Shown: piece by piece, positions 33,724 to 59,673 of the stretch
Numbering within the stretch: position 1 is the first letter of the stretch
Layout: each line of letters starts with the position of its first letter
Position numbers and translations under genes: made by a program
The notes under the pieces: model-generated
Told to the model about the DNA's origin: nothing
The model's input: the letters and a program-made list of their open reading frames with translations, nothing else
Database searches by the model: none
Assembly (NCBI GenBank): GCA_026770025.1
Contig: JAMXDE010000013.1
Location: 310,001-374,000 of the forward strand
Length of the DNA stretch: 64,000 bases
Direction: 5' to 3'
From: Craspedostauros australis
Lineage: Eukaryota; Bacillariophyta; Bacillariophyceae; Mastogloiales; Achnanthaceae

Positions 33724-33890
33724 GAGCCCCCCGAGTGAGTCGACCACTCGTTTGAAACGGACCTCCAGAAATTTTCTCTCCTACATACTAACCAAGCACA
33801 TATTCGTAATCCTTGTAGGTCTAATACAAATAATTAACCATTACATTTTTGAATCAGATCCTACTTTAAGTTTTATGGACCGATGGATAT
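33724..33890 (+). repeat. Left terminal inverted repeat
   Basis: Read inward it matches the right arm: 37 identical bases, then interspersed identities, with identical blocks at 33792-33814 and around 33868-33880. Confidence 0.85.
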
Positions 33891-34403: not shown

Positions 34404-35240
34404 ATGCTTGGCGCCGCACCAACCAGCCGGCCAATTCAAGATCCAAGCACATCGCCGTCACCGCCACGCAACGTTTGGTGGGTAGACGAGCGGAGGCGGG
34501 AAGAGAGGTTGATTTGGGGCCGTCGTAGGCCCCAGAAACACGATCACAATTTGGCCCCAAATCGGCTGGTTGGTTTTGGCCTGTGTGTGGCACACACAGG
34601 CCATATCAGCGCCTTCGGATACTCAAGATGCCTCAGGAAGGCCAAGACGAAGGCACCCACGAAGTTTGAGGCTCGCGGAGCACCGGGAAGGTGTCCGCGC
34701 GGAGAGAAAGGTGGTTTTGAGGAGTTTTGGTTGGGGCTCGCCTGGCACCATTCGCGTGGCTTTGGCTGTGAGGGGCGATGGGAAGACGCCCCTCAATCAC
34801 CAAGCCACCCATACAAGATGCGTGCGGCATCAATTGGAGATGCACGTCGTGAAGTGTGCGCCACGGAGACGGTGTACAAGAGGCTGCAGCTGACCATATC
34901 TGCAGAATGGTCGTTGTTGGTGGGAGCAAGAAATGCACCACCACATCATCTTGTGGAGGTGCATCACGTCCGCCATGCACTCCCAGCCCAGTCTGGATGC
35001 ATCCACGTGTCGCCATGGAGTGTGGTAATGCACGAGGAGCGCTTGGAGGGGGTGAAAGGATCGTATGGACGAGATACGGATCCATATCTGAACTGTATCC
35101 ACATCGAAACTGATTTTTCGAAAACGATCTGTTTCGGTGTGTGGCTGCATTGCTGCATGCAGAGCCAATGTCTGAGGCCAACCTTCATGGAGTGGATAGC
35201 TGGGGGGTATGCAGAGCGAATGGTATGCACAGTTTGCTGA
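34404..35240 (+). CDS. Doubtful open frame inside the transposon
   Basis: ATG at 34404 opens 278 codons to TGA at 35240. The translation is rich in Arg, His, Trp and Cys with no recognisable domain; partly overlapping minus-strand frames are similarly long. It could be an unrelated passenger gene, a decayed nested insertion or chance. The gap between it and the left arm contains nothing else supported. Confidence 0.2.
   Translation: MLGAAPTSRPIQDPSTSPSPPRNVWWVDERRREERLIWGRRRPQKHDHNLAPNRLVGFGLCVAHTGHISAFGYSRCLRKAKTKAPTKFEARGAPGRCPRGEKGGFEEFWLGLAWHHSRGFGCEGRWEDAPQSPSHPYKMRAASIGDARREVCATETVYKRLQLTISAEWSLLVGARNAPPHHLVEVHHVRHALPAQSGCIHVSPWSVVMHEERLEGVKGSYGRDTDPYLNCIHIETDFSKTICFGVWLHCCMQSQCLRPTFMEWIAGGYAERMVCTVC
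34511..34602. repeat. Two adjacent perfect inverted repeats
   Basis: GATTTGGGGCC at 34511-34521 pairs with GGCCCCAAATC at 34553-34563. GGCCTGTGTGTG at 34578-34589 pairs with CACACACAGGCC at 34591-34602 with one base between. Both would form hairpins in single-stranded DNA or RNA. Confidence 0.8.
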
Positions 35241-35574
35241 AATACAAGGATGATCATGATGATCATGTGTGCTCATTGGAGGGCAACATTGTGGCATCAA
35301 CAATTTTTTCTCGGATCCACCACACAACACACAGCAAACCAACATGACTTCCACAATATTTTCTATACTCATTTAACTGCAATATTCTGATTAACAGATA
35401 GCCAGGCGTCTGAATGCAATGTTCATTTTTAATTTTAAGTGATGTGTTGTTGAGATATAGCATGATAAGCAGATATTGGATGTGCTTTTTGGACGGCCTC
35501 TAGACTCGTTTTAGTAGCCTGACCGGGCACCCACAAATCTCCACAACTAGTGTTATCGCGGCGACGCACAACCA
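35241..35574. other. Transposon interior, AT-rich, no gene
   Basis: Between the doubtful plus-strand frame and the transposase stop. Nothing recognisable. Confidence 0.5.
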
Positions 35575-38500: not shown

Positions 38501-39087
38501 TCTTCTGGATCGTGCCCGAACTGGCCTCCTCTCCTGTTCCTGCTGGCACGTGTTCGTTGCTCCTTGCCGTTGTCCTCGTACGCGCTGTCGCTATCGCTAG
38601 AGGCATCTGCGTAGCCCCCAGCAACAACAGCATTGCAGCGACGAGGGAGCCTCGCTGGTGGGGTCGGCGCGACAGGTGGTGCAACGTCAGCTGCAGCATG
38701 GGGCGGCGCGTTCACGATAACGCTCACCACTGCTCCATCGCCGACACCTCGTCCCTCCGAACGCACCTCGACGTGGGAGTCGTCGTAGACGCATCCGTTG
38801 TTGTCAAGGATGTGAACGTACACGTGCAGCTCGCGAGCGTGCGCATGCATACCGTTCGGGACGAGGTTGCCATCCGCTGCATGCATCGGCTTCACATCCA
38901 TCACTCGCGTGATGGTGCTCTGCTTCCTCAACGTAGCGGACGGCTTGTCGGGCAACAGTTGCTCTGCAGTCGGCAACAGGAATCCCTTCGAATCGAAGGG
39001 AGCAGACACAGGGTGAGCACGTGGTTTCTTACTGGGGGAGGGGTTGGCATCGTTGGAGAGGGCCTTGGGGGTGGTAGAGAGAGGCAT
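35575..39087 (-). CDS. Transposase-like protein of the TIR element (1170 residues)
   Basis: ATG at 39087, uninterrupted. The N-terminal 200 residues are Pro and Ala-rich. A Cys/His-rich patch sits near residue 540-615 (HMQLQCDDPMHSAAF, then CNRCGAAM), a possible DNA-binding zinc structure with a basic linker between. The candidate catalytic core comes next: YVVLDHKQKILPTGQSEAQQ near 695, IIQQSNNACCF near 780 and WIYTEAQTGKSMLDTHFAYI near 815. This order D, N, E looks like the RNase H-fold DDE core, and resembles transposase-like proteins in other eukaryotes with E.Q..FFGKRG and SEPQ.GK motifs (recalled, not searched). In relatives I expect D in place of the middle Asn. An acidic tail rich in Glu closes it. 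Function as a transposase is inferred from the terminal repeats. Confidence 0.7.
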   Translation of the reverse strand: MPLSTTPKALSNDANPSPSKKPRAHPVSAPFDSKGFLLPTAEQLLPDKPSATLRKQSTITRVMDVKPMHAADGNLVPNGMHAHARELHVYVHILDNNGCVYDDSHVEVRSEGRGVGDGAVVSVIVNAPPHAAADVAPPVAPTPPARLPRRCNAVVAGGYADASSDSDSAYEDNGKEQRTRASRNRRGGQFGHDPEEAGNWRRDAIVDVIAVLGSNLDPELLHHMPKKGFVLAGTHDRTIWSYVKQMWSVLSSALWTVLLPEEDMPTRQMEQVLTYIRSNVELPPVMLASNLYTLGLLGESESSRTVRAALAVSAPYALCTTILERHAHGLSEEQKARMLPKRDIVTQSQASTLRRYYDMLSHGESIPPKVLQYRVRACDLSAVASFLVTTATYKAGLSHTVQYGGVKFENVPVFDRGSTTIEQLFGMYTSTTNSPVGMPAFTTMTHLLTRKSKIKTGLSSFESYFWMATEKLKQAISRLVDLLKAKYEADEEEQNDANDKSDSDNDEPDDVIAPHVRTADSLLHALELLVVFLKWEFTASHMQLQCDDPMHSAAFALTTKKEKKKATSTSTNQRKPRTNKHKRKKTTTITNDIPIITNDIPVTTASEQPRKVCNRCGAAMRFVDDRFVPFVTMLKDNELAEHTDELQSMLAAAPGFSDEIVNYMAHKVRAKVQFRQIAFYQSELNDKPERAYVVLDHKQKILPTGQSEAQQEYWGKKGMSLLGAMVITCRNDIFTYQFIDIVVGGRPTQDTLQVGGLLDILQKTVKDILPSVTEIIQQSNNACCFASHEHIALITSVLNKNLATRKAARIIAWIYTEAQTGKSMLDTHFAYITRVLRKYVQSGKDIKTPFQLFLALKAGNIAGTTTVLVNASSLQGNITTLPGAPKRRFRANGQQVRQTHEVKYDDDQARLVAASGITEDVVVKSAEWDGWIIKQLGVVAVHTHKSDKLPITSESFRKTDKTRKLGRTAAESKAIVFGKVLQVAQRCLPSDNTAELKDKTAETEHPPLAVPGWASKTVRINAKLPDYIADKLKDISEASAKDPKNRPSEHEAHEQLMNDNSTKTDWYVQLHANPMCVKASLSAAYNAKQRKDKKQAALIKAETNTNPTSKVAASEIVAIHNAPAATEEERREEELQREEEELENQRWCDAHTAKVNAESEAVLDDGTEIL

Positions 39088-39201
39088 GATGTAGCTGTTG
39101 GTGTAGAGTAGTGTTGTTTGCTAGTTCGATGTGATGGTGTGCACTGGTCTGAGCCGAAGTGAGGACAGGAGAGCATGGGATGATGAGTGGACCATTCGTT
39201 G

Positions 39202-39228
39202 ACAACAGCAACAACAACAACAACAACA

Positions 39229-39267
<39 letters not shown>

Positions 39268-39278
39268 GCTACTACTAG
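39202..39278. repeat. (AAC)n and (TAC)n microsatellite upstream of the transposase
   Basis: AAC units at 39202-39230 followed by TAC units at 39231-39278, about 115 bp upstream of the transposase ATG. Confidence 0.9.
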
Positions 39279-39608
39279 TCTGACGAGAACGGGCATGGAG
39301 CGAAAGGGCGAGTGTGCAGGGCATTGGCGAGGACAGTTGTGAATGGAGCCAAAGTGTGGCGCGATTTTGCGAAATGATGGAGATGATGTGTTTTGTGTGA
39401 TGTGTTTTGTGTCATGTGTTTTGTGACGAGCAGAATGCGGAATCAGGTGCCACATGCTAACGTGTAATTAACGCGTACCAAACCACCGGCACCTTCGGAA
39501 GCAAGTCCGTGACTGATCACCTCACGATAAATAAATGAGAACATCATCGAACCTTCTGCCAATAACAACGGGTTTTGTGCTGTTGGACCCACGCGACTAG
39601 AATGAACA

Positions 39609-39774
39609 TATAGATCGATCCATAAAACTTAAAACAGGATATACATCAAAAATCGATCGGTTAATTATTTGTAAGAAGATTATAAGGATTACGAATATGT
39701 GCTTGGTTTGGATATCGAAGATGAAAAGTTAGAATGCCCGTTTCAAACGAGTGGTCGACTCACTCGGGGGGCTC
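39609..39774 (-). repeat. Right terminal inverted repeat
   Basis: Reverse complement of the left arm with the same outermost 37 bases and a shared block around 39684-39706. Confidence 0.85.
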
Positions 39775-43092: not shown

Positions 43093-44845
43093 CGGTGTGC
43101 GTATGTGTATGCGTGTGTGTGCATGTGTGTTGTGATGACCTTGGATGATCGACTGCGGATTTCGTGGCTTGATGTCTTGAGTGGCATCATCGTCTCCAGG
43201 TGCTTCTTTCAACCATGAGCAACATGTGTGGAAGAAGTCAGCTTCGGCAGATTCGGAAAACCAAAAAGATGACCCTCACTTGTTGAATCGTGTTTCTGGA
43301 TTGTTGAAGCTGAATCACGAAGTTCGTGTCATGTCACAACACATGATCAATGTGGTCGATAATCGACTACATCGAGCCACCAACGAACGGAAGAAAAAGT
43401 CGCCAACAGAAACAACAGGAACAACAGAAAACAGAAAGCGTGGAAGGACAAACTGCCACCCGCGCCGCCACCCACAATTGCCACCACCACCAACAACAAC
43501 CGCAAAGACAGATTCGAAAGACACTCCACGATTGACCGCGCAGAGAAACACTACAGAGACTCCAAAAATCCGCAAAGCCATCGAATCTATCCAGCCACCA
43601 AGCAGCCCATACATTCATCCATCTGGCTGCTGCCTCGATCTCTGCACAGGTGTCACCGAATGCGTCGTTTCCAGCATCATCCGTTGTTTGTGTCTTTCTT
43701 TTCATCGGAACGATCGGTTTTGTTGGCGATTCAGTGCAGAGCAGAGTAGAACAGAGCGGCAACACTTGGCGCGAGTTTTACACATTTCGGTGGTGAGTAA
43801 CGAGCCCACAATTGTCTGTTGGGATTCCATCTCGGACATGCATGTGAGTGAGTGAGTGAGTGGCTGCATGGATGGATGGATGGATGCATGGGCGTCCGGA
43901 CATGCGTATGTTTACACCGTGTGCCTTTCCTCGTGCTGGCGTTGCTGTCTGCGTCTCTTGTCGTTCGTGGCTTGTCTGTCCACGCCTTCCTTTGGTAGAC
44001 CTTGGTGGTTGTGCACTGGATGGAAGGTCGGAGCTTGTTCGGTCTTCATGGGCTACCACGCCGCACTCCTACATGATGCGCAGCAACCTCCACCTGCGAT
44101 TCCCTCAGTTGTTGTGACTCCCAGTGTTTCTGCTTGCGCGAAGTCTTTTATGTTGGCATCGTCCGCAGTCTGGCGGCCCTGATGTGCTTGGATGCGGAGG
44201 CCAGAGGAAGAAGAACCAGGAGCTGCAATGATGACTGGTTGGAATGACGCAAGGACCTCTCATCACAGGCTCGTGCCCGGCTTTGTGTTCACAATCACGT
44301 TTGCGACGGGCGATCGCCGATCATCATCGGCGTTGATTCGTATGTATTATACCATTATATAACATATGGCGCATTCACCTCGTTGTGCGCATCCTCATGC
44401 TCAAGTCGATCTCGATAGCACAGCTCCATTCCTCCCAGCTTCATCTAGCGTCTATCTTGCCTTGCATCATTCATGGTGGTGGCATCGGGCATACTCCCCA
44501 CAAGGCATGCTATTCGTAACTGTGCTCGCACTTCAGCGAGTACTCGTACTGTATGCATGCTCATGTTATCAAGCATTTTGACACTGCCAATGCTGATACT
44601 CGTACGCACGCTACTCCAGAGAGAGAGACAGAGGACGCTGACCAATCTTTCCTGTGCCTGCATACCATACGTACCGCACATACTCGTACACATGCTTGTA
44701 TGTATGCAAACTCGCACGCATGTGAACACTCATGCCATCGGTTCGACGACAACTCACCAACGATTCCGCTCGCAACACCCAATACGTATGTAACACTCGG
44801 CCCTATTGTACTCTCAGCAACAACGATCAACACTATCCAGCAATC
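43093..44845. other. Intergenic between the divergent exostosin and helicase genes
   Basis: About 1.75 kb shared upstream region of two divergent genes. It contains (GAGT)n at 43844-43862, (GGAT)n at 43868-43885, an AT-rich tract at 44345-44365 and three ACTCGTAC words at 44542-44689. No supported gene. Confidence 0.55.
43844..43885. repeat. (GAGT)n and (GGAT)n microsatellites
   Basis: Two short tetranucleotide tandems separated by GGCTGCAT. Confidence 0.85.
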
Positions 44846-47800
44846 ATGCCATCGTCCAATCCATCCCAAAAGGAGTTGGGCATCTTTGAGAAGCAACGCC
44901 GGTTGGCTGCGATGATGAAGAAGCCCTCTTCTATTGGTACGCCAACCAACTCCGCTGCCAAGAGCAATCCATCGAATCCATCGGCGGTCCAAAAGGTCAA
45001 AGCTGGTGGCTTGACTCTGACCAAACGGATATCAACACCAGCATCAGCACCAGCACCAGCAACCGCCTCCTCTTCTTCCACCTCGCAGGTGCTTAGTACA
45101 AACCAGAAACCGGCCTTGAAGCGACCTCGACAGAAGCTAAGTCCGGGCAGACCTGCGGCGAAGATCATCATGATCGACCCGGTGCAACCACAGGGAACCA
45201 AGAATGAACCACCAACGAAGCGCCCATCCCTGAAGCGACCGAACCGGGCCAAACAACCAGGCCAATCGTTAGCGTCATCTTCGGCTCCACCATCGGCCCA
45301 TGGCATTCTAGCCGCAGCGCGAGCCAACGCAACGGCATCAGGTAGTACGGGCCGAGTCCCAAAGATATCGAGTAGCGGTGGCGGTACGGGAGTGGCCACG
45401 GCCGCGACTGAAGCCAGCAAAAAGGGGAGCATGACCCGCCTTGCATCGCTCGTCAGCACCATCGGCAGCGGCACAAGACTGTCCGGCATGATGAGCGAGG
45501 ATGGCATATCATCCGCTTCCTTCGCTACGAGCACCTTGCCGGATGACTTTTGGAAGAGCATCCGAGAATGGAACTTCGTGACTGACCTCGCTGATCAGCA
45601 GAAGGAGCAACAGCATCCGAACGGTCAGCAACAGAAAGGAACGAAGAACGACAACAGAAAAGGCACCTTGGACGGTTCTACTAATGCTCCTGGCGCAGAC
45701 GACGATGTTTCGCAGCAACTGGCCAGAAGCAAGAAGAAACCACTGCCTGATACCTTCATCAACCACCGCCATTACATCGCGGCTTGGGCTCCGCTTTGCA
45801 TGGCCGAGGCAAGGGCGCAGCTTCTGTCTGATATCCTGGGTGACATAGTCCCGTGACTCTTCCACTGTTGATGACGTACGTAGGACCAGTACAAAAACTT
45901 TTACGTAGAACACGTAGAAACACTACCAGCACAAAGTTGTTGACAATGGTGCGCACAGACGCCCAAAACGATGTTGGCAAAGCCAACCAGACCCCTCGAA
46001 AGCCACCGACAATGGGACGAGGACGATCAGGAAGAGGAGGCCGTCAGGCCCGTGGCAAAGGCGCTCATGGGGGAGGCCGAGGAGGGAAGAGGCAGGCCAG
46101 AGACTCACCGACCAAAAAGTCCCCAAAAAAGGGTGCGATCCAAAACGAGAACCGTTGGATTTGGAGCCACCAGCACGAAAGAAGCTGGGGAGACATCCTC
46201 AGAGAGAGAAACTTGATGACCCGCGGAACAGAGCCGTTCACGGCAACCACCGGAGAAGATGGAGCGCTTGACGAGTCGATCGCCTTCGTGAGAGAGATGA
46301 GCGACGAGCTAGCAGACGGAGCAACCTTGGAACAATGGAAGGTCCTCTTTGAGGACGCGTACGACAACAAATTACCAGCGGAATCCAACCTGCAGGTGAT
46401 CCAAGTCATGGTGCGGCTAGTGGCCACTTCGAACATCTTCTCGTCCTCAATGTGGAAATTGGGACAAATCAAAGCCACACACGAGACATCGGCGTGGATC
46501 GCCGCCCGAGTGGTGTTCATGCAAGTGAAAGGAATCCGGTTCGACGACGACGAGGACAAGGATGAAGCACAAGCTACCTCCCCGAACCCGTCTTCGAAGA
46601 AGAAGTCGCGCAAGCCACGCAGGAAGGTCATGGCGTACCCACGGAAGGCCCCACAGGCCAGAGAATTGCAGAGCGTCAACGACGTCTTGAGCGACTTTCA
46701 CAAAACGTTCTTCGACGTGCGTCTACCGATGTCCAGGGAAGGCAGCGAAACCCCATTGGTACAAGTCATCGCGAGCCTCAACGCCCTCAGAGCATTCATC
46801 TTCCGCGCGGACTCTAAAGCGCAAATTCTGGCGTGGCGCAAGAGCAAAGAGTTGCGTCCTTGGACCGTGGCGGATGTGGCATGGACCAACAGGGAGACGC
46901 TGAAACAGTTCGTGGAAAGTCTATACGCCCGGACTGGTTTCATGACTTACACCCGCATCTGGGTGGCCCACAAACAAGACCTGGACGTGTTCGAGGACGA
47001 CGGCACCCTGGCAGCAGCTGCGATTTCCTTCCGCAAGTCCGACATCCAAGAACACAATGTCGTCGCGGCAGGATGGCTGTTTGGAAGCCATAGCTCCATG
47101 AACACCGACGACCTTGCTGAAGTGATCAACGTCAACGAGCTGGTGAAAAACCAATTCGTGGTTCAGCTTCGGGTGAGGGAAATCCAGCTGGTCAGGAGGC
47201 GCGGCCGCAGACCAGACACAGACGACTTCCGGAACCGACCCAGGGCGACCCACATCATGTGCGGGGAATCCAAGTCAAGGGTGTGTCGTGTGGCGATGAA
47301 GGAGATGTTCAATCACAGAGCGGACACCGTCCGTCTCTTGGGAAAGCAGATGCGTTTCATGCCAGATGCCCTTGACCAGAGATTCCACCACCCCCCGTCG
47401 GAACTCGCAAACCTGAGCTCGATGGTGGCGCACCAAGTGGCGTTCGAGAAGAAGATGATGACTCAAGGCGTCTACTCCATCATGCAGCTGGATGTCGAAG
47501 TGCCTATCTGGAACCTCACACTCCGCGAGGTGGTCATGAACCTGCGCTCCTTTGAAGACCCTGACTACACACTGTTTGTGTCAGTGGACACAGACAAAGC
47601 GGACCGCAACAGGACCTTCTTTGTGTTCCACCCCAAACGACAAGTGGAGGCCAGAGAGCTGATCTCGAAGCTCCCATTCTTCTGCAGCAAGAAGCTCGAC
47701 CACAAGTGCCAAGGCTGGTTCACACCAGAAGCCTGGGCGCAAAACGAGTTTTACGACGTGGACTGGGAAACCGGGCTTGTGAGAAGCAAAGAGGAACTCG

Positions 47801-48677
47801 AAATGGGACAGCTGGTGCAGGCAGGAGCACACTTCCTGGATCTGGATGAAGAAGAGATGATCGGCCTCACTGCGGCTGATGTCGGGTGGGAAGGCTACGT
47901 CGATGAGAACGGAAAAATGAAGCCCGTTCCGCTTCTGAAATTTGAAGTGGAAATGACGTCGAACCCCAGAATCCAAAACGGAGACAACGGTACGGTGGCA
48001 ACCTTCGCGACGGCCACAGTAGCGCAGCAATCGGCACACGTAGGCACGGCAATCGCCAACACAGCGAGAAACAAGTCGGCCAATCCGCGGCAATTCGCAG
48101 CAGACCCATCGGCGAAAACAGACTTCGACGTGGATAATCCGGGCATCAGCATCCCTGAAGGCGAAGAGAGTGTGTCAGACGACGGAGAACTATCTATGGC
48201 AGCGGGAACGGATGGCAAAGAAAGCAGTGCGACCTCGAGTGAGGACGACGAGAGCGATGATGAGGAGCAGAGTGTGGAGGACATGGAAACAGAAGATCCA
48301 ATGGACACCGAACAAACCAAGCAGGCAGGCGCAGACGCCGCACGAGTCGAGTAAAAAAAAAAAAAAAACAACAACAACAAGAAGGAGCCCCGACGGAAAA
48401 TCGAGCAACAGCAATAACAAGACACCGATCGAAACAACGGCAACACAACAACGAGACGAAGGCAAGGCAACTCACAGCTGCACAGATAGAAGGCCAAGGA
48501 GACGAACAAATACAATACGGCATCATCGAAGCATAACGTACCGCGACAGCGAACATCGACAACAGTTGTAACAACACAGGCATCAACACCAGGCCCACGC
48601 GACAGCAACAGCAACAGCAACACCGACAGCATCAACAACAACAACGATAACATAACAATAACAACGATAGCACCAAT

Positions 48678-48739
<62 letters not shown>

Positions 48740-51700
48740 CCACAATATCAACAACTACGACAACAACCACCACCAACGACCACCGACATCGCCGCCCACG
48801 TAGGCAACAACGACAACATCAACGAAAACAACAACGGCGGAGTCAACGATAACGACACCAACAAGGTCAGAGTCGAACCGGAAGGATTGTGACCACAGAG
48901 CCAACAATCACCACAACACCATCAGTGCCAAGGTTTCGGTGCCCCGGTTCCACTGAGTACCGGAGACAACACCATGACAGACCAGGAGGCGCTAGATGCA
49001 GCAAGTAGGCTAAACGATGCTTGCGGGGATCCGATGACGGAAAAGGCTAAGGCGACGATCCGCATCGTATACCAAAATGTAGCCCAGTTACCCATTCACA
49101 CGTACCAGCAGAAGAACGAGGAGATCTTCGGGTTCATTAAATCAAGCGACTTGGACATGCTATGCATGGCGGAAACCAACATACGTTGGGACTACGCACG
49201 ACCGCACGACCAGTGGGCAGAGCGATCCAGACGACAGCTACCCCGATCTAAACACTCCTTTGCTTACAACACGCACGAAGACAAAAGAGACCCGCGACTG
49301 TATGGAGGAGCAGGGGTGGTCGTAACGGCGCAAATGGCCGCACGTACGTTTCAAACTGGAACCGATGAGAGTGGTATGGGTCGGTGGTGTTGGACCCTCA
49401 CGGAAGGGAAAGGCACCAAGAGATTGCGAGTCATCGCAGCCTACAGGCCATGCCGGTCTACTGAGGGAGCCACCACGGTCTGGGCACAACAGACGCGAGC
49501 ACTGCACGCTACCGGAAGAGAAGAGGACCCGCACGAAGCCTGGATCACAGACATAACAGCCGAGATACACAAGTGGAAAGCGGATGGCGACACCATTGTA
49601 CTAGGAGTGGACCTGAATGACGATGTCATGGATAGCCCGACCGCCAAACGCCTCGAGGCCGCAGGGTTGCAAAACACGGTACAGAAACGAATAGGACGAG
49701 ACCTATCTCGCCGAGCAACACAACAACGCAACCGCAGCGGTATTCCTATCGACGCGATATTCGCCTCTGAAGGAGTCGTCCTGGAGAAAGCCGGCTACTT
49801 GGAGTTTGGTGCAGCAATCCCGTCCGATCACAGAGCGGTGTGGATCGATATCAGCTTCGACCAGGTATTGGGAACAGGTATCAAACCGGTTCGCAAGGCT
49901 ACGCCACGCCGTCTTGTGCTGAGTGACCCCCGAGTTATGCAACGGTACAATGACGCGCTTCTAGAAGAATACGGAAGACACAACATCTTCGACCGCACGC
50001 AGAAGATGTGGCTCACAGCCAAGACCCAAGGGTGGAGACTGACTCACGACCAACGCCGCCAATACGACAAGCTTCTTACTCAAACATACGAGATCCGCCG
50101 GCACGCGGAGAAGGGGTGTCGCAAGCTGAAGATGGGAGGGGCCGCCTGGTCTCCAGAACTGCAACACGCAAGGAACGTGATCAAACACTGGTCCCTGGAG
50201 GTCAAACACCTGGCAGGGGTAAAGGTCAGCTCGTCGCTCCGGTGCCGCACACGGAAGCTGGTGGGACTGGAGGTAGGGGAGACTCTGCTCCAGGCACAAC
50301 AACGCCGATCGGAGGCATACACCACATACTACAAGCAAAAGAAGGACCACGAAAAGGCCCGTCAAGAGTTTCTGGTACAGATAGCCAGGCAACGACACGA
50401 CGCCCATGAACAAGAATACGAAGCCGCACTGCAATCCCTGATGAATCGAGAGAAACAACGGGAACAAGCGGGACGCCTTCGAGCCGTGTTTGGGCAAGAC
50501 AAGTCGATGACGACGAAGGTCTTATTCACGGATGACGAAGGCCGATTGCAGGAATGCACGGAACAACACGACATCGTCACAGCGTGCATAAGGGAAAACA
50601 AACGACGATTTTCCCAAGCAGACCAGACCCCTTGCATGTCGGGCCAGACGAAAAGGATCATGGACCGGATTTGGAATCCAGCACTGGAGACACAACTCAT
50701 CAACGCGCAGGGATCCACCCCAGAAGTGCCGGATCCTATGACTCATGCCCTGCTGCAGTCCTTACAACCCATTGCACAAGACAAGGAGGAACTTACGACA
50801 GAGGAGCACATCAAAGCGTGGAAACGACAGACGGAACTGACGAACTCAGAACCGAGCACGCCGCACTTCGGACACTACAAAGCAGCGATGTCCGTCAAGA
50901 GCCTAGCAGACGCCGACATGATGTTGAGGGACATTCCGTACCAAACAGGCCATTCGCCGAGACCATGGCAAAGGATCACCGACGTCGAGATACTGAAGAA
51001 GGCGCAAGTCTTCAACATCGAAAAGATGAGGACTATACAATTGATGGACGCGCAGTTTAATCTGAACAACAAAAGACTTGGACGACAAATGATGCAAACT
51101 GCGGAGAAAGCAGGATGGCTCTCGGGATTCCAATTTGGTAGCCGCAAATGCAGGTCGGCAATCAGCGCAGCACTGAACAAGCGTATCAGCATTGACCTGG
51201 GTTTCCAGCGGAAAGTGGCGGTCTCATTCTGCTCCAACGACGCAAAATCCTGTTACGACAGGATAGTCCCAAACTTCGCGGCGACGGTGATGATGGCGGC
51301 CGGAGCGAACAGATCGGCGACGAGAAGCATGTTCAAGACGCTCCGAGACGCACAGCACCACATTAGCACCGCATACGGAGTGTCTGATAGATCATATGGT
51401 CGCGGGGCGGATTGCCAGATGCACGGCATTGGCCAAGGGAACGGGGCAGGACCGGCTATTTGGGCGGTCATCAGTTCCGTCATGTTTAACGCTATGGGTC
51501 TTCTTGGTCATGCCTCGCCGCTACAGACCCCTGACGAGCAGACGATCTCAATTCTGGGATCAGCCTTTGTGGACGACACGGACCTAGTGAGGCTGGAAAC
51601 AGGTGGCACAGTGACGGCGGACACGGAAGCCTTTAAGGCGATGGTACAAGACTGGAGCAAGCTGCTGCATGTTACCGGCGGTGCTCTCGTGCCGAGCAAG

Positions 51701-54700
51701 TCTGCTTGGTGGGCGATGCAACCGGAATTCGTTTCAGGACAATGGACGTGGCAAGACGCCAACCCGTTGACCACCATCAATATCAACGACGGGCACGACT
51801 CAGCGGCGGAAATACCGTACAAACCAATGGACCAGCCACTCTTCACGTTGGGAGTGTTCATTGACTTCGACGGGAATCAAGAAGCGCAGGCTGACAGACT
51901 CCGCAAGAAAGCAGAAGAATTCGGGGGACGCATGCGGACGGCGAAAATTTCTCCAGCCGACGCAAGGTCTGCCCTCACGCTGCGGTTCATGAAGACGATT
52001 GAATACGCGCTTCCAATGGTTCAGCTTACTCGGCCACAATGGCGGCGGATCATGGCCCCGGCGTTGCTGGCAGCACTCCCGAAAATGGGGGTATCCAGGA
52101 ACTTCCCGAGAGACTTGGTGTATGGTACGACGTCACTGGGCGGGCTGGGGATCATCAACCCAGCCAATATGCAGTTGATTTCGCAGGTCCAGCTGGCCTT
52201 CGACGAAGTCCATCGTGGCACCCAAACTGGGGAAATGATCAAATGCTCTATTCTGGCCTTGAAAGAGGAGCTGGGAGTGGAGCGATCTCTGTTCCGGTAC
52301 TCACACAAGGACATCGGACACTGCGCCACGAGTTGCTGGGTCACCGGACTCTGGCAACAGCTTCACGACACCAGCATAGACATCCTCGAAACCACGAAGT
52401 CGGCGACTCGCCAGCGGCGAGGCGACAAGTGCTTGATGGACATCTGGCTCAGCCAGGGTGTGAAAGGAGCTCAGCTATACCATCTGAATATGGTGCGTCA
52501 GAAGCTGGGTGTGATACGAATGTCAGATATCACGTCGGCTAACGGAACGAGAATACTGGCGGAGGCGCATGACGGAATCGCCGCTTCGACCCTGCCCAAG
52601 CAATGGGCAAGCCAACCTGACCGCCTCCCGAGCGGCTGGTGGAAGGAATGGCAGCGGTGGTGCAAATTCATGTGCTTCCGAGGCTTGACGCTCCACCAAC
52701 CTCTGGGTAGGTGGCACAGCGATGATAGGACCTGGCGGTGGTGGAAGCTACCGTATACAGACGTGATCTTTGACATGGCCACTCGTCCAATCCAGCGCTA
52801 CAGGCAGCGTCTCACCAGCCGGACCCGTCGACAGCGATTCACTAGGGCTGGACACGTCGAGGTGCTCCCAGCGGGGGCCAAGCGCGTGTCTGTCACGATG
52901 ATCGAGACGGGAATCGAGTGGGATGGCCATGTGGGCCTGGCTGAGCCGAGCGACGAGCCCTCGGAAGGCTACAACCCGGTTGAGCAGCTGCAGGGAGAGC
53001 TACAGCCTCACGACGCAGTAAGGGCAGCCAGACGTGGAAAGCTGCTGGTGGTGAGTGACGGTTCGTTCAAGGATTTCCGAGGAACCTCGTCATCGATACT
53101 GTTTGATGCCGAGTCTAACGCCAGCATGAGCTGCAACACCTTTGTCCCAGGACCCCGAGAGGTACAAAGCGCCTACAGAAGCGAACTGGCAGGTGTATGG
53201 GCGTCTCTGGCGGTCATATCCAGGATGCCAGGGCTGGACGAGGACTGCGTGATCACGCTGGCCTTAGACGGTAAACAGGCCATGCTACGAGCGCAAGAGG
53301 ACGAGCTCCGCCCACATCAGCGAGACTGGGACGTGCTTACCGAGATCCGGAAGCTTCGGCAACAGATTCGGGCCACTCTAAAATGGGAATGGGTCAAAGG
53401 TCACCAGGACGATACTGGGAAGACGCTGACCACCCTGGAGCGGCTCAATGTGATTGTCGACGACAATGCTAAGCGGTTCTGGGCTGAGACAGCACAACGC
53501 CGAATGGTGAAAAGATGGAACACGAGCACCGATCGATGGCGTCTACGTCTCCGAGACACGGATGCTTCGCATGTGGACAAGCACGCATTGAACGAGATAC
53601 TTCAGGCGGCGGAAGCCGCCACCTATTGGTCGTCGAAGTTTCAGTGGGAGGACGAACAGGCCGCAGCGGTGGACTGGCACACGTACAGGTCAACGAGGTC
53701 GGCCAATAAGAGCAAGGCGATGGTTACCTTCATGTCCAAGTGGTCCTCTGGTTTCATCGGTGTCAACAAGAAACTACACCAGATGGGACAGCGACCCACG
53801 GCGAAGTGCCAATTCTGTCACCACGAGGAAACGACGGAACACGTGCTGCAGTGCCCAGAACATCAGGAAGCTTGGCAGGACTCCACGGCCGAACTGATCG
53901 CCACCATGGTGAGAATTGGTACGTCTCCGCGACTGGTCCAGAACATGCGAGTGGGGCTAGTGCGGTGGAGACGGAAGCTGAGAACGGATGGACCTCAGAG
54001 CGCGGTAGGTTGGTATCCTCTGCTAGCAGGCTTTCTACACAAGGATTGGGTGCGAACACAGAGGCAGTGGATGAAAACGCACGAGTGCCTTTTCCCTGAC
54101 GCTAGGGCGTGGGCAGGTGAAGTCACCCGATGGATTTGGAAAGTACCTTGGACGATATGGACGGCGAGAAATGCGAAAGTGCACGACGGGGATCAGCATC
54201 CAACTACGCAGGAATTGCGCAGGCAGGTGCGCCGGATAACCCAGAGTGCCAGCCAAGACATGACGGCGTCAGAACTGCAGCTCTTACGAGACGGACGCAA
54301 CATCGAGTACGGCACCGAAACCCAAATGCGACAATGGGTGCATTCGATGACGGCAGTACAGGCCGCAGTCAAAGCCCGACGGCGGTCGCGTTCCATGCAA
54401 GCGGAACGACAGGCCATGGCAACGTGGCTAGGCCTAGATTGAGTAGAATCTCGACAGCTCGCTCGAAGCTCGGTCCTACGGGGCCGGCGACGGCGAGGGT
54501 AAAGCCTTATGGCACATCTATGATGTAATCACTGAGTTATTATTATTATGATATCCTGGGTGACATCGGCCAGTACTTTGAGCGCAACAAAGGTGGGAGA
54601 GGAGGCAGCGCGTCGCCGTTGGTTCTCGTCAAGGTGGAAACGACGTCGAGATCGGGCACCCACCGACGTGGGAGGAATCTCAATGTCCACGAGGACCTGT

Positions 54701-57700
54701 TGTCAACCGTCGACTCGTGCAATGTCCAGCTCAGCGTCAAGCATAATGGGGACGGCAATGGATTGCAATTCTTTGCGCACGACGTCTGCTGCCTCATCCC
54801 AACGATGTACAGCACCATAGTGGAGAAATTACTACGCGGGGGCACATCGAGGGATCTGGCTCGCATCCTCCATGAGAAAGGCATTGACGACGATGGCGAC
54901 GGTGGCTTCCCATTCCACAAGATGGCTATGGTCGGCCACACGGAATTGACTCGGAAGTCATTGAACGGATTGATCCTGAAGGTGTCGAAACGTCGCTGGG
55001 CGCGGATCGGAGAGCCAGAAATGTACCTGCTGAAGATTGGTGGCAACATCACATCGTTGAGAGAGTTCACGGCATTATGCAACATCGAACGGTTGCCTCT
55101 GCTCAAATACCTGCTCGGTCAGCACTTGAAGGGCGATGGGGAGGGCACGCGCGATGGCATGCTGGACCCGAACAAGCGGCCAGGCAGAGATGGCAGGATA
55201 TCTTCCGACGAAAAGAGCAGACTGCTGAAGAAGATGGGCGGAGTCCAAGCCTTGGGCAAAGGATTCACGTCGTATGCGGAGAAGAAGTTCAATCCTTCGC
55301 AGCTCACTGCCATCTCTGCCTCTGCCAAGGGCTACGGAGACGGTGGATTCACATTGATCAAGGTACGTGCACATGCAGATACGCGTAGAACACAAAGCAG
55401 AATCTGCGATGTGGTACGAGCAAGCATGGATGAATGAATGAATGCATCTTGCACGGTGGCGACGGGGCTGGACGATAGAAGTGATCATTGGATCTACTCT
55501 TACGTACTGCGACGCTGGAGAGAGGTGTTGCCTGCCGCATGCCCTGTGCGTGTGCTTTGATGCTTTCTTGGCGAGTGCATACTTTGGAGAAGGCACAGTG
55601 AGTGGGCGTGTATGGGTATGGGGGCGAAACGCTCACCAGTTGTTTCATCCGTCTTTGTATCTGACTTTGCAATGATGCTTCATACGGAAGTCGATGCCAT
55701 CTATTCCACATCTCTCCAACTCACTACGACCAACCTCGCTGAATCATGATGGCCATGTTGGGCATGCTAAACAGGGACCGCCCGGCACTGGAAGTAAGTT
55801 TGCTGCATGCCTATCCGTGCTATTTGTATGAAGTGTATGTTTGGCCACAGGTGAACTCTGCGAAAGAATGATCATTACGAGGACCATCATCGATGATGAT
55901 ACCTGATGCAGTGTGTACTCTGGTATGGCCAGGCTTATACCATACATTCGTGCTTGAACATTGTACACTGTACATTCGTATTCGCACTTGTACTTGTACT
56001 TGTACTGACATCGACACTCACACCGACACTATTCGCACCGAATTACATACTCCACTATTGCGCATCGATGCATCGATACATCATGGCACTTCGCGTCACT
56101 CCACGTCACTTCGCATCACCAAATCTTGCAGAAACGACGACGCTTGTGGCTGTCCTGAACTCCTTGCATATTCGTCAGTACAACAAGTACTACGAGGAAG
56201 TAAAGCGCATTGCAGCCATGCAGACTGGAAACCGCCAAGCAGCGTTGGCGGTGGCCCGCAAGGCAAAACCCAGGCTACTGGTATGCGCTCCATCCAATGC
56301 TGCTGTTGATAACATCATCCTCAAGATCATGGAGGATGGATTCGTGGACGGAAGCGGGAAACGGTACAACCCAAGCATGATTCGGGTGGGAGTTGGGAAA
56401 TCACCAGCCGTCAAGGATGTTGCCCTGGAAACCAAGGTGGACTCCATCCTTTCCGAACACATGGACGCGGGCCGGTTGGACTCCACGATCGCTGGCCTCC
56501 GCATGGAGCTGCAGCGTATATCTGGCGACATTGCCAAATACAGACGCCGGATCCATGCGATCTCGCAGGCGTCACCATGGCCACTTGCCAAGGACTGGGA
56601 AATCAGGATCGACGAGAAGACCTTCGATGAGACTGGCATGGTGTACTTCGTCAATCACAAGACGCAGATGACGACGTACGAATGCCCGCCGCCGCCGGAA
56701 CCTGGCGAGAGGCAATTCCCAGCAAGGGCCATGCCCGAGTACAAGTCGTACGTTGCCCGTATCGTCAAGTCCGTTGAGGGATACTTCAGCATTAAATCCA
56801 ACCTGGAGCGCACTACAATCGTGAAGGGCACTTTGGACAGCGGCGCAAATCGCATTGCTGTCCGGCAGTCGCTAGAAAGCCATGTTCTCAACTCCGTTCA
56901 CATGGTGATGACGACGCTCGGCACTGCGGGAAATCGGGTGCTTGAGGGCGTTGACAAGTTTGAGGTGGTGGTTGTGGACGAGGCGGCACAGAGCGTGGAG
57001 CCGGCAACGCTATCTGCATTGCAGTTGGGATCCCGGCATGCGGTACTCGTGGGAGATCCGCAGCAGCTGCCTGCCACAATCTTCAACGTCTCCGGACGAG
57101 GCTCGAAGTTTGACAGGAGTTTATTCCAGAGGATGGAAGAGGCTGGGCAGGACGTGTTCATGCTGAATGAGCAGTACCGAATGCATCCGCAGATATCTCA
57201 CTTTCCCCGTCACATCTTCTACGGTGGCACGCTGAAGGACGGCCCCAACGTCACCAAATCGACTTATGGGAATCCGTTGGTCAAGTCTGTATGCTCCCGC
57301 GTCCCAGCATTCAATGTGAGTTGCTGATGGTTACTGATGGTTACTGATGGTTACGATGTTTACTGATCACGGCTCATTCGATCAATGATGAGCTGTTGCC
57401 GTTCCGTCCGATCTTGCCTGTGCCCAGTGTCGTGGCGACTCCGTCGATTATGCCGGCGATGCTCAAAGTTACGAATAGGACTCAGGAATGACCCAAATCC
57501 GACCAGAATCGAGAAGGTCTGAATGGAAGCAACCCACAGTATGCTGCAACCCAGTGCAATGCGATGCTCTACGTATGATGTATCATATCACTCACATGCT
57601 GAGATGCTGTACTATACTCTGCCACTTCTTTTGCAGCCGTTCACCGTCCTTGATCTGGATTCCCGTGAGGAACGAGGCGGGACAAGTTTGGCAAATTCAA

Positions 57701-59673
57701 CCGAGGCTCATCTAGCGGTCCATCTGTACACGTCTTTACGCGACATCACCAATGGCCTGTCTGCCAAGTCGCGCGTGGCCGTCATTACACCATACAGTCA
57801 GCAAGCGGGCTTGTTGAGGCGTGTCTTTCGCGATGCGTTGGGGAACCAGTGCGATCGATTGGTGGAGGTTAACACTGTCGATGCATTCCAAGGCAGAGAG
57901 GCCAACATTGTGATCTTCTCCGCCGTCCGAGCAGCAGGCAGCCATGGCATTGGCTTCCTCAGCGATGTGCGGCGCATGAACGTGGCTCTAACCCGTGCGA
58001 AGCACTTTCTCTTCGTCATTGCGAGGTGCCAATCGATCGTTGTCAATCCATACTGGAGAGATCTGGTGGGGCATGCCAGAGAAACCAACGCAGTTGTCCG
58101 TGTTCCGATGAAGAACGGATCAAAGTTCAGCAAGGTCGATTTTGGTGCCATCACGCAATGGCAGGGAGAGAATCCGAAGCGAGTGGATCCTTTGGAACGC
58201 ATCCAGTCGGTTCAACCATCTCGGGAGCGTGCAGTAGATCCACGGCGCCGAAAGGCAACCCAAGCGGCATCATCAGGTGTTGCGAGTGGAGGAAGTGTCA
58301 GCATCGAAATCCCACCGCAGCAACAACAACAGTTGCCACCCAGTCGAACGTCGTCACAATCAGTCTCATCCTCTTCAGTTTTACAGCAACCACAGCCACG
58401 GCCACAGCCCCAACTACAGCCCCACGTACAGCAGCACACACAGGTGAAAATGCAACCACAGCTCCAGCCGCAAACGCAAATCCAACACCAACACCAAACG
58501 CAGCCAATGTTGGATACAAGGTCGCAACTGCCATTAATGTCGTTGCCACCGTCTATGCCACAAGCCACGGAACATATGAATCTGCAAGTTCAACCACAGC
58601 AACAACTGCAACCACAATCGCAACCGCAACCGACACAAAACGAAATTCATCTCCAGGCACAAATGCAGCAGCAACAGCAGCAGCAACCGTTCCAATCGCA
58701 AGTACAATCGTCAACGCACCAGCAACCAATGGTGCAGCAGCAGCAGCCGTTTCAGCCACATCCTCAGGCGCAGGCGCAGGTGCAGGTTCTGATGGGACAG
58801 CAGCAGCTTCAGACACAAATGCAACAACCACAGATTCAACAACAATTCCAAGAGCAACCGCACTCGCAGATGCATCAACTTCAGGCACAGCAGCAGCCAC
58901 AACAACACCAACAGCAGCAGCATTTTCAACCGCAAATGCAACCACAGGCGCAAGTGCAGATACAACAACCACAGATGCAGTTGCAACAACAATTCCAACC
59001 ACAAATGCAGATGCAGCTGCAAATGCAGCAACCTCAGATGCAACAAGTGCAACCGCCGCAAGGGCAGATGCAACAACAAAGCATTCGCTCACAAGCGGCA
59101 GTGCCGATGAATGCAATGCCAATCGCTGGCGCAGTTGCAGTATTGCCCCCGCCACCCTCTGCAGCGACACACAGACAGCAGCAACTTCCGCCTCCTCCTC
59201 CGCCACCACCACCCTCCGCCGCCCAATATCCACAGCACCATATGCCATCACAACTCGGGCAACACACGTATCCAGGAGCAGCACATGGCACGCAGCACCC
59301 ACCGGCAATGTACCCAAACCAAGACTACAATCAGAACCCGAGTGAAGACCAATATCAGCATCAAACTCCGCACCACGTCCGCCGTGAACATGGTGTGTCA
59401 CCACCCCCGCCACCTCCTCCTCCGCCACCACAGATGCAGCAGCAGCAACATCAGGCGAATGCATATTCACAGCCCCATCATGGTTTTCAGCCTCCTCCCC
59501 CACCTCCACCGCCACCGCCCCATCCGAGTACTTACAATCCCCACTCTGCCAATGCACAAAAGACAAGACCCAAATCGAAATGGAAAGGGAAACAGAAGCA
59601 CAAAACCAAGAACAAACAGAAGCAACGACAGAGTCAGAAGCAGAAACAACACATCCCTGGTCCATTTGGTTGA
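44846..59673 (+). CDS. SEN1: Sen1/senataxin-type SF1B RNA/DNA helicase, first exon interrupted by a LINE
   Basis: Host exons are 44846-45846, then 54567-55362 after the insertion, 55775-55793, 56132-57315 and 57637-59673; junction phases all agree, giving 1678 residues if the retrotransposon is absent. In the allele shown, the reading frame ends two codons after the insertion point. The N-terminal 300 residues are low complexity, then a Sen1-like region (NHRHYIAAWAPLCMAEARAQLL). Motif I GPPGTGKT is residues 600-607, DEAA (motif II) near 889, GDPQQLP (III) near 914, NEQYRMHPQ (IV), DAFQGRE (V) near 1082 and RRMNVALTRAK (VI) near 1111. A WW-like unit at about 755-795 lies between motifs I and II. 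The C-terminal 470 residues are Gln, Met and Pro-rich. Sen1 unwinds RNA:DNA hybrids in transcription termination. The symbol is by family resemblance. Confidence 0.85.
45829..45846 (+). repeat. Target site duplication, left copy
   Basis: The 18-bp sequence TGATATCCTGGGTGACAT ends at the 5' boundary of the retrotransposon and is repeated at 54549-54566. Confidence 0.9.
45871..48354 (+). CDS. LINE ORF1 protein (RNA-binding-like)
   Basis: Two ATGs compete: 45871 (827 residues) and 45946 (802 residues). The start is rich in Gly and Arg (GRGRSGRGGRQARGKGAHGG), an RGG-like nucleic acid binding segment, then Lys-rich (PTKKSPKK). The middle is globular without a domain I can name; the tail is strongly acidic (EDDESDDEEQSVEDMETEDP). 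No zinc knuckle of the gag type was seen. In LINEs, ORF1 binds the element RNA to form the RNP. The frame stays open for 2.5 kb. ORF1 ends in TAA followed by a run of 16 A. Confidence 0.8.
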   Translation: MTYVGPVQKLLRRTRRNTTSTKLLTMVRTDAQNDVGKANQTPRKPPTMGRGRSGRGGRQARGKGAHGGGRGGKRQARDSPTKKSPKKGAIQNENRWIWSHQHERSWGDILRERNLMTRGTEPFTATTGEDGALDESIAFVREMSDELADGATLEQWKVLFEDAYDNKLPAESNLQVIQVMVRLVATSNIFSSSMWKLGQIKATHETSAWIAARVVFMQVKGIRFDDDEDKDEAQATSPNPSSKKKSRKPRRKVMAYPRKAPQARELQSVNDVLSDFHKTFFDVRLPMSREGSETPLVQVIASLNALRAFIFRADSKAQILAWRKSKELRPWTVADVAWTNRETLKQFVESLYARTGFMTYTRIWVAHKQDLDVFEDDGTLAAAAISFRKSDIQEHNVVAAGWLFGSHSSMNTDDLAEVINVNELVKNQFVVQLRVREIQLVRRRGRRPDTDDFRNRPRATHIMCGESKSRVCRVAMKEMFNHRADTVRLLGKQMRFMPDALDQRFHHPPSELANLSSMVAHQVAFEKKMMTQGVYSIMQLDVEVPIWNLTLREVVMNLRSFEDPDYTLFVSVDTDKADRNRTFFVFHPKRQVEARELISKLPFFCSKKLDHKCQGWFTPEAWAQNEFYDVDWETGLVRSKEELEMGQLVQAGAHFLDLDEEEMIGLTAADVGWEGYVDENGKMKPVPLLKFEVEMTSNPRIQNGDNGTVATFATATVAQQSAHVGTAIANTARNKSANPRQFAADPSAKTDFDVDNPGISIPEGEESVSDDGELSMAAGTDGKESSATSSEDDESDDEEQSVEDMETEDPMDTEQTKQAGADAARVE
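48353..48973 (+). repeat. A16 run and (CAA)n inter-ORF spacer of the LINE
   Basis: The ORF1 stop overlaps a 16-A run (48353-48368). The following 600 bp is mostly CAA, CAG and ACA-type simple sequence, with 21 AAC units at 48678-48740. It has no coding pattern. An AC-rich, poorly structured spacer of this length may serve ORF2 translation, but this is a guess. Confidence 0.75.
48974..54442 (+). CDS. LINE ORF2: endonuclease, reverse transcriptase, RNase H, zinc knuckle
   Basis: 1822 residues from ATG 48974. The APE-like endonuclease occupies about residues 1-290 (IRIVYQNVAQ, CMAETNIRW, and SDHRAVWIDIS at 281). Reverse transcriptase: FGSRKCRSAISA near 719, FCSNDAKSCYDRI near 753, GIGQGNGAGPAIW near 818 and the catalytic FVDDTDL near 864. 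The RNase H core near 1356-1490 has SDGSF, RSELAG, LALDGKQ and VKGHQDD in order. A C2HC zinc motif (CQFCHHEETTEHVLQC) lies near 1611. Protein order EN-RT-RNH-zinc matches RNase H-bearing LINE clades. It nicks target DNA and reverse-transcribes the element RNA there. No frame break. Confidence 0.9.
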   Translation: MTDQEALDAASRLNDACGDPMTEKAKATIRIVYQNVAQLPIHTYQQKNEEIFGFIKSSDLDMLCMAETNIRWDYARPHDQWAERSRRQLPRSKHSFAYNTHEDKRDPRLYGGAGVVVTAQMAARTFQTGTDESGMGRWCWTLTEGKGTKRLRVIAAYRPCRSTEGATTVWAQQTRALHATGREEDPHEAWITDITAEIHKWKADGDTIVLGVDLNDDVMDSPTAKRLEAAGLQNTVQKRIGRDLSRRATQQRNRSGIPIDAIFASEGVVLEKAGYLEFGAAIPSDHRAVWIDISFDQVLGTGIKPVRKATPRRLVLSDPRVMQRYNDALLEEYGRHNIFDRTQKMWLTAKTQGWRLTHDQRRQYDKLLTQTYEIRRHAEKGCRKLKMGGAAWSPELQHARNVIKHWSLEVKHLAGVKVSSSLRCRTRKLVGLEVGETLLQAQQRRSEAYTTYYKQKKDHEKARQEFLVQIARQRHDAHEQEYEAALQSLMNREKQREQAGRLRAVFGQDKSMTTKVLFTDDEGRLQECTEQHDIVTACIRENKRRFSQADQTPCMSGQTKRIMDRIWNPALETQLINAQGSTPEVPDPMTHALLQSLQPIAQDKEELTTEEHIKAWKRQTELTNSEPSTPHFGHYKAAMSVKSLADADMMLRDIPYQTGHSPRPWQRITDVEILKKAQVFNIEKMRTIQLMDAQFNLNNKRLGRQMMQTAEKAGWLSGFQFGSRKCRSAISAALNKRISIDLGFQRKVAVSFCSNDAKSCYDRIVPNFAATVMMAAGANRSATRSMFKTLRDAQHHISTAYGVSDRSYGRGADCQMHGIGQGNGAGPAIWAVISSVMFNAMGLLGHASPLQTPDEQTISILGSAFVDDTDLVRLETGGTVTADTEAFKAMVQDWSKLLHVTGGALVPSKSAWWAMQPEFVSGQWTWQDANPLTTININDGHDSAAEIPYKPMDQPLFTLGVFIDFDGNQEAQADRLRKKAEEFGGRMRTAKISPADARSALTLRFMKTIEYALPMVQLTRPQWRRIMAPALLAALPKMGVSRNFPRDLVYGTTSLGGLGIINPANMQLISQVQLAFDEVHRGTQTGEMIKCSILALKEELGVERSLFRYSHKDIGHCATSCWVTGLWQQLHDTSIDILETTKSATRQRRGDKCLMDIWLSQGVKGAQLYHLNMVRQKLGVIRMSDITSANGTRILAEAHDGIAASTLPKQWASQPDRLPSGWWKEWQRWCKFMCFRGLTLHQPLGRWHSDDRTWRWWKLPYTDVIFDMATRPIQRYRQRLTSRTRRQRFTRAGHVEVLPAGAKRVSVTMIETGIEWDGHVGLAEPSDEPSEGYNPVEQLQGELQPHDAVRAARRGKLLVVSDGSFKDFRGTSSSILFDAESNASMSCNTFVPGPREVQSAYRSELAGVWASLAVISRMPGLDEDCVITLALDGKQAMLRAQEDELRPHQRDWDVLTEIRKLRQQIRATLKWEWVKGHQDDTGKTLTTLERLNVIVDDNAKRFWAETAQRRMVKRWNTSTDRWRLRLRDTDASHVDKHALNEILQAAEAATYWSSKFQWEDEQAAAVDWHTYRSTRSANKSKAMVTFMSKWSSGFIGVNKKLHQMGQRPTAKCQFCHHEETTEHVLQCPEHQEAWQDSTAELIATMVRIGTSPRLVQNMRVGLVRWRRKLRTDGPQSAVGWYPLLAGFLHKDWVRTQRQWMKTHECLFPDARAWAGEVTRWIWKVPWTIWTARNAKVHDGDQHPTTQELRRQVRRITQSASQDMTASELQLLRDGRNIEYGTETQMRQWVHSMTAVQAAVKARRRSRSMQAERQAMATWLGLD
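54443..54548 (+). other. LINE 3' untranslated region and (TTA)4 tail
   Basis: About 106 nt after the ORF2 stop, including a GC-rich hairpin-capable segment near 54470-54500 (GGTCCTACGGGGCC), ending in four TTA units at 54537-54548. Confidence 0.7.
54549..54566 (+). repeat. Target site duplication, right copy
   Basis: Identical to 45829-45846. Past it the host frame resumes with GQYFERN. Confidence 0.9.
55363..55774 (+). other. Helicase intron 1 (phase 0)
   Basis: Donor GTACGT at 55363, acceptor ACAG ending 55774. No other gene inside. Confidence 0.85.
55775..55793 (+). other. 19-nt microexon encoding the Walker A loop of the helicase
   Basis: Nineteen nucleotides (GGA CCG CCC GGC ACT GGA A) between ACAG at 55771-55774 and GTAAGT at 55794. 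They encode GPPGTG and the first base of the catalytic Lys. Exon 54567-55362 ends FTLIK at phase 0 and exon 56132 starts with AA then ACG, so the three pieces read FTLIK-GPPGTG-KTTTLV. Confidence 0.85.

What the first reader, a model, noticed from the sequence alone, without database searches (positions are those of the whole stretch)
45829..54566. A complete-looking LINE splits the coding exon of a Sen1-type helicase
The host frame reads through DILGDI on one side and resumes as DIGQYFERN on the other, separated by exactly one 18-bp duplication and an 8.7-kb element with two long open frames. In this copy the helicase frame ends two codons after the junction. With every helicase motif intact downstream, the insertion is recent. 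Either this is one allele of a diploid, another helicase copy exists, or the gene is dead here.
Basis: partly seen in the sequence, partly recalled or inferred. Interest (0 to 1): 0.85.

Follow-up and report, generated by a model that had tools for sequence, protein, structure and literature searches.

The report
Intact LINE retrotransposon interrupting helicase gene
A recently inserted, apparently still intact copy-and-paste retrotransposon sits in the middle of a coding exon of a Sen1-type helicase gene, an ordinary kind of insertion mutation, although the element's reverse transcriptase is unusually divergent.

Summary
An 8,702-bp element (45847-54548) lies between two identical 18-bp copies of TGATATCCTGGGTGACAT. 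Joined, the flanks give one intron-containing gene of 1,716 codons whose helicase core is Sen1-type; with the insert, its frame ends two codons past the junction. The element looks like an APE-type non-LTR retrotransposon: ORF1 with an RGG-like N-terminus; ORF2 with endonuclease (Pfam E 4e-10), RT motifs A-B-C in order (0 of 200,000 shuffles), a weakly supported RNase H, then a CCHC motif; and a (TTA)n tail. Pfam's RVT_1 misses the RT, so the clade is unresolved; domain order points to the I group. Identical duplications and undamaged frames argue for a young insertion (below about 0.9% divergence). Target-primed insertion explains it; splicing out is unlikely. Whether it is one allele, or a second helicase exists, could not be tested: no genome is held and no relatives were found in the collections searched. 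Ordinary in kind; the divergent RT is the more interesting part.

The parts
44732..45846 (+). Left coding part of the helicase exon 1 (first in-frame ATG 44732, second 44846), ending with the TSD
45829..45846 (+). Left target-site duplication, TGATATCCTGGGTGACAT
45847..54548 (+). Non-LTR retrotransposon, 8,702 bp
45871..48354 (+). Element ORF1 (827 aa from ATG 45871, 802 aa from ATG 45946); RG-rich basic N-terminus, acidic C-terminus; no Pfam match
48355..48973 (+). Inter-ORF spacer, 619 nt, 45% A and 7.6% T, A-run then CAA repeats, no ATG
48974..54442 (+). Element ORF2, 1,822 aa from first ATG (frame open from 48893)
49115..49831 (+). APE-type endonuclease domain (residues 75-313 of the open frame)
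   Evidence: PF03372 E 4.1e-10; E 1.1e-11
51239..51577 (+). Reverse transcriptase catalytic core, motifs A (DAKSCYDRI), B (GIGQGNGAGP), C (FVDD)
   Evidence: no RVT_1 match
53051..53461 (+). RNase H-like domain, D-E-D-H-D residues in order
   Evidence: pattern also met by 181 of 50,000 shuffles; Pfam PF00075 E 0.016, below cut-off
53807..53854 (+). CCHC motif CQFCHHEETTEHVLQC downstream of RNase H
   Evidence: zf-RVT E 0.0071, below cut-off
54443..54548 (+). 3' UTR with predicted hairpins, ending in (TTA)n
   Evidence: z -2.53; 6 of 200 shuffles fold as well
54549..54566 (+). Right target-site duplication
54567..55362 (+). Remainder of helicase exon 1
55775..55793 (+). 19-nt micro-exon carrying most of Walker A
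56132..57315 (+). Helicase exon 3 (AAA_11; weak WW-like match)
57637..59673 (+). Helicase exon 4 (AAA_12, Q/P-rich tail, stop)

Best explanation
A non-LTR retrotransposon of the APE-endonuclease type, with ORF1 and an EN-RT-RNase H-CCHC ORF2, inserted by target-primed reverse transcription into coding exon 1 of a Sen1-type helicase gene. Its endonuclease nicked the bottom strand at the left edge of the 18-bp target, RT copied the element RNA from its (UUA)n end, and staggered second-strand cleavage produced the 18-bp duplication. The event is recent: the duplications are identical and neither the element frames nor the host frame has decayed. The carrying allele now encodes only a 336-374 aa N-terminal fragment without the helicase core. 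The cell most likely has an intact allele on the other haplotype. Shown: duplication, insert, frames, endonuclease domain, RT and RNase H motifs, host gene model. Inferred: route of insertion, activity, heterozygosity.
For: Exact 18-bp duplication and TTA tail at the 3' junction. Continuous 1,716-aa spliced host frame on joining the flanks; truncated frame with the insert. Sen1-type core with the seven motif strings looked for. EN by Pfam. RT motif triad, 0 of 200,000 shuffles. No stop in 2,649 element codons and 1,678 host codons: upper bounds about 0.9% divergence (element alone) and 0.55% (with host), assuming no selection. Precedent for one-haplotype TE insertions in a diatom.
Against: Pfam and PDB sequence searches do not find the RT. 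A profile of prokaryotic RTs gives no significant match: hmmsearch E 0.1 for the RT piece, while the ORF1 control scores alike at 0.11; hhalign aligns only motif A, P 0.29. RNase H is weak: Pfam E 0.016 and its pattern occurs in 181 of 50,000 shuffles. Structure predictions without relatives failed (mean pLDDT 33.6 and 43.5). Homology of the host protein across the junction was not shown: SEN1 matches start well to the right of it. Heterozygosity is untested. The 5' leader is only 24-99 nt, so 5' truncation is not excluded.
Confidence: 0.93

Rival explanations
1. The insertion is homozygous and tolerated because another Sen1-type helicase gene exists or the gene is dispensable.
For: Nothing in the window excludes it; the assembled haplotype carries the insertion.
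Against: The host coding parts show no decay, which fits a very young event or one masked by an intact allele; no genome is held in which to look for a second copy.
Confidence: 0.25
2. The 3' part is still expressed as an N-terminally shortened helicase from a start inside or after the element, so the gene is split rather than dead.
For: The right-hand frame is open from 54529, its first in-frame ATG is 54805 and the seven helicase motif strings lie downstream.
Against: Eight other ATGs lie between the ORF2 stop and 54805: six out of frame, and two in the same frame but before the stop that opens it. No transcription data. The lost part includes sequence before the core that looks Sen1-like from recall, which one search did not confirm.
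Confidence: 0.08
3. The element is removed from the mRNA by splicing, so the host protein is made.
For: The flanks are in phase once the element and one copy of the duplication are removed.
Against: Exact removal would need splice sites at the duplication. A narrow scan of 45600-46000 and 54300-54700 found no donor, and its last acceptor-like string ends about 90 nt before the right-hand duplication. The host introns in this gene are 321-412 nt.
Confidence: 0.03
4. Misassembly or chimera of two loci.
For: A single assembly, no reads.
Against: Exact 18-bp duplication, repeat tail exactly at the junction and a continuous gene across it.
Confidence: 0.02

Closest known systems
I-group non-LTR retrotransposons (clades I, Ingi, Nimb, Loa, R1, Tad1, Loner, Outcast)
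   Same: RNase H is reported from this group (PMC4640811, passages); CCHC downstream of RNase H, as reported for RNase H-bearing non-LTR elements other than plant/oomycete L1 (PMC5348765, section 5); EN-RT-RNase H order (recalled for the group)
   Different: RT core not found by Pfam RVT_1; motif C is FVDD and motif B QGNGAGP; RT phylogeny could not be made
Plant Ta11 and oomycete L1 with archaeal-type RNase H
   Same: EN, RT and RNase H in ORF2
   Different: CCHC is downstream, not upstream, of RNase H, and the active-site position reads H (VKGHQDD), not R
Oomycete Utopia
   Same: Non-LTR element with RNase H
   Different: APE-type EN instead of restriction-like EN; RNase H after RT, not before it; target is not a U2 gene
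Sen1-type SF1 helicase (host gene)
   Same: Best solved matches are an unnamed 5'-3' RNA helicase-like protein and SEN1, ahead of NAM7/UPF1
   Different: N-terminal region unconfirmed by homology; weak WW-like match between motifs; long Q/P-rich tail

Membership tests
Non-LTR retrotransposon (LINE) | Target-site duplication flanking the insert | tested here: met
   18/18 bp
Non-LTR retrotransposon (LINE) | No LTRs or terminal inverted repeats | tested here: met
   No repeat of 60 nt or more at the element ends (shorter ones not searched for); the element matches only itself in the window by blastn
Non-LTR retrotransposon (LINE) | Endonuclease (APE or RLE) | tested here: met
   PF03372 E 4.1e-10, 40.2 bits against a cut-off of 24.5
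Non-LTR retrotransposon (LINE) | Reverse transcriptase | tested here: inconclusive
   Ordered motif triad, 0 of 200,000 shuffles, but no RVT_1 match, no PDB match, and no significant match to a prokaryotic RT profile, where ORF1 scored alike
Non-LTR retrotransposon (LINE) | 3' poly(A) or short-repeat tail at the junction | tested here: met
   TTA repeats directly before the right duplication
I-group non-LTR retrotransposon | EN-RT-RNase H order in ORF2 | tested here: inconclusive
   Order found at residues 75-313, 783-895, 1387-1523, but RT rests on motifs and RNase H is weak (Pfam E 0.016; 181 of 50,000 shuffles)
I-group non-LTR retrotransposon | RT phylogenetic placement | not testable with these tools
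   No relatives found in the collections searched:
RNase H-bearing L1 (plant/oomycete) | CCHC upstream of an archaeal-type RNase H with R at the H position | tested here: not met
   CCHC at residue 1639, after RNase H; VKGHQDD carries H
Sen1-type SF1 helicase | SF1 motifs and closer match to Sen1 than to UPF1/IGHMBP2 | tested here: met
Sen1-type SF1 helicase | Sen1-like region across the insertion site | tested here: inconclusive
   No SEN1 alignment across the junction

The most novel reading that the evidence does not exclude
The element represents an undescribed clade of APE-type, RNase H-bearing non-LTR retrotransposons. Its RT core (D.K.CYD / QGNGAGP / FVDD) has diverged beyond the general RT profile. 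It couples its two ORFs through an ATG-free, T-poor CAA spacer. This copy is still active, caught while breaking a helicase of the type that resolves RNA:DNA hybrids (recalled for Sen1). Whether such a clade has been described was not settled by my literature searches.
Probability: 0.3. Interest if true: 0.5.

Novelty: new member of a known kind. Interest (0 to 1): 0.35.

Why it matters
It is a clean example of an apparently intact LINE caught soon after insertion in a coding exon, with exact edges that give the ends of this copy. The RT is invisible to the general Pfam profile, so domain-based annotation would label ORF2 only as an endonuclease; such elements may be under-counted. Breaking a Sen1-type gene is notable because Sen1 acts on RNA:DNA hybrids (recalled), but no link between target gene and retrotransposition is shown.

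Tried and rejected
Pfam at E up to 10 with whole ORF2 and with three RT fragments: no RVT_1. NCBIfam: one irrelevant match at E 0.21. PDB phmmer of ORF2 at E up to 1: no match. Relatives of ORF2: two protein-based scans of viral contigs (2 and 3 stretches matched a pattern, none confirmed). Motif-B and motif-C patterns in viral contigs and genome contigs gave 30 stretches in all (0, 25, 3, 2); tblastn of ORF2 against all 30 gave best E 0.15, no relative, and the two motif-C matches are unrelated proteins. A profile of prokaryotic RTs (13 loci chosen of the 23 listed; 12 gave a protein): hmmsearch E 0.24 for ORF2, 0.1 for the RT piece, 0.11 for the ORF1 control; hhalign aligned motif A only, P 0.29. 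The RT fragment against 20 genomes: best E 0.036, treated as chance without further check. AlphaFold2 on the RT stretch and the RNase H stretch, single sequence: unusable (mean pLDDT 33.6 and 43.5), so no fold search was run. PDB search of the host region at the junction gave mostly designed ankyrin proteins through one short stretch (best 4.8e-8 for the whole sequence, no single stretch convincing), rejected as chance. The spacer 48355-48892 was folded to see whether it is unusually open: it is not (z -1.87; 3 of 100 shuffles fold as well). Misassembly and splicing were rejected as above. Literature listings gave no description of this element; only the passages and sections named in the report were read. 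The host organism was not identified; a diatom or other stramenopile alga is a guess from recall.

Full report
Observation. The two junctions were read directly. The longest exact match between them is 18 bp, TGATATCCTGGGTGACAT, at 45829-45846 and 54549-54566. The first T could belong to the (TTA)n tail, so the duplication is 17 or 18 bp. The insert is 45847-54548, 8,702 bp. blastn of the element and tblastn of its two proteins found no second copy in the window.

Host gene. Joining the flanks and using GT-AG introns with good donors (GTACGT, GTAAGT, GTGAGT) gives exons 44732-45846 + 54567-55362, 55775-55793, 56132-57315 and 57637-59673, 1,716 aa with a single terminal stop. The second in-frame ATG is at 44846. 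A 19-nt micro-exon holds most of Walker A. Introns are 412, 338 and 321 nt. Pfam finds AAA_11 (E 2.1e-49) and AAA_12. The best solved relatives of the core are 8ftm, named only a 5'-3' RNA helicase-like protein (4.5e-77), and SEN1 5mzn (3.2e-72); NAM7 follows at 1.3e-48 and UPF1 at 3.9e-45. The seven SF1 motif strings that I looked for are present (motif names recalled). The insertion falls at residue 372, well before Walker A at 638. No SEN1 structure aligned across the junction, so the frame there rests on continuous phase, not on homology. With the insert, the frame ends ...DILGDIVP-stop, leaving a fragment of 336 or 374 aa depending on the start (counted from the coordinates).

Element. 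ORF1 (from ATG 45871 or 45946 to 48354) has no Pfam match. Its first 100 residues from ATG 45946 hold 23 K/R, 8 D/E and 10 RG or GR pairs; residues 701-800 hold 28 D/E and 7 K/R. ORF2 (48974-54442) has an endonuclease domain at 4.1e-10. Pfam reports no RT in the whole protein or in three fragments. The motifs are nevertheless there, in order and with usual spacing (spacing judged from recall): D-x4-Y-D-x-I at 783, G-x2-QG-x3-GP at 845, FVDD at 892. The pattern occurred in 0 of 200,000 shuffles of ORF2. I wrote it from recalled RT motifs after seeing the sequence, so that figure is not a blind test. A profile of 12 prokaryotic RTs gave no significant match, and the ORF1 control scored alike. 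A D-E-D-H-D series typical of RNase H follows at 1387-1523; its pattern is met by 181 of 50,000 shuffles and Pfam gives 0.016, so this assignment is probable rather than sure. A CCHC motif follows at 1639, with zf-RVT at 0.0071. The 106-nt 3' UTR folds better than most shuffles (z -2.53; 6 of 200 as good) and ends in TTA repeats.

Mechanism. APE-type EN, RT, a 3' simple-repeat tail and a duplication of this length are what target-primed reverse transcription leaves (established knowledge of LINEs, recalled). From the geometry, the first nick lies on the bottom strand at the left edge of the target. That is inference, since only one copy is known.

Age. With no selection, zero nonsense changes over ORF1 and ORF2 gives an upper 95% bound of about 0.9% substitutions per site, or about 0.55% if the host coding sequence is counted as unconstrained too. 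Frameshifts were not modelled. The identical duplications agree but are too short to add much.

State of the gene. No genome is held, so allele, second copy or dead gene cannot be separated. In Phaeodactylum tricornutum many TE insertions were found in one haplotype with the other intact (PMC2806351, passages and section 11). This makes the one-allele reading the default if the host is a diploid alga, which is itself only a guess.

Affiliation. [quoted passage not shown] In plant and oomycete L1 the CCHC lies upstream of RNase H, and in other RNase H-bearing non-LTR elements downstream (PMC5348765, section 5). The order here and the H at the active-site position therefore fit the I group better than L1. 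RT phylogeny was not possible because no relative was found.

Verdict. The finding is real and correctly described, but ordinary in kind: a young LINE insertion mutation. The parts worth following are the divergent RT and the ATG-free spacer.

Noticed in passing
48355-48973: The 619-nt spacer between the element's two ORFs contains no ATG (3.7 expected by a first-order model, P(0) 0.02), begins with a run of A and is CAA-rich and T-poor; it may help ribosomes reach ORF2. Against a simple open leader: 48355-48892 is not less folded than shuffles (z -1.87).
   Followed up: partly
33724-39774: A 6.05-kb DNA-transposon-like element: inverted ends (49 of 60 matching), flanked on both sides by GTAA, with a 1,181-aa minus-strand frame lacking any Pfam match at E 0.01.
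   Followed up: partly
55775-55793: A 19-nt micro-exon encodes most of the Walker A motif of the helicase.
   Followed up: no
56617-56688: A weak WW-domain match (E 3e-4, below Pfam's cut-off) lies inside the helicase between motifs Ia and II.
   Followed up: no
18634-22739: Adjacent minus-strand frames with AAA and PEX-1N domains look like a PEX1 gene; a Sec7/PH protein lies at 11726-17896.
   Followed up: no
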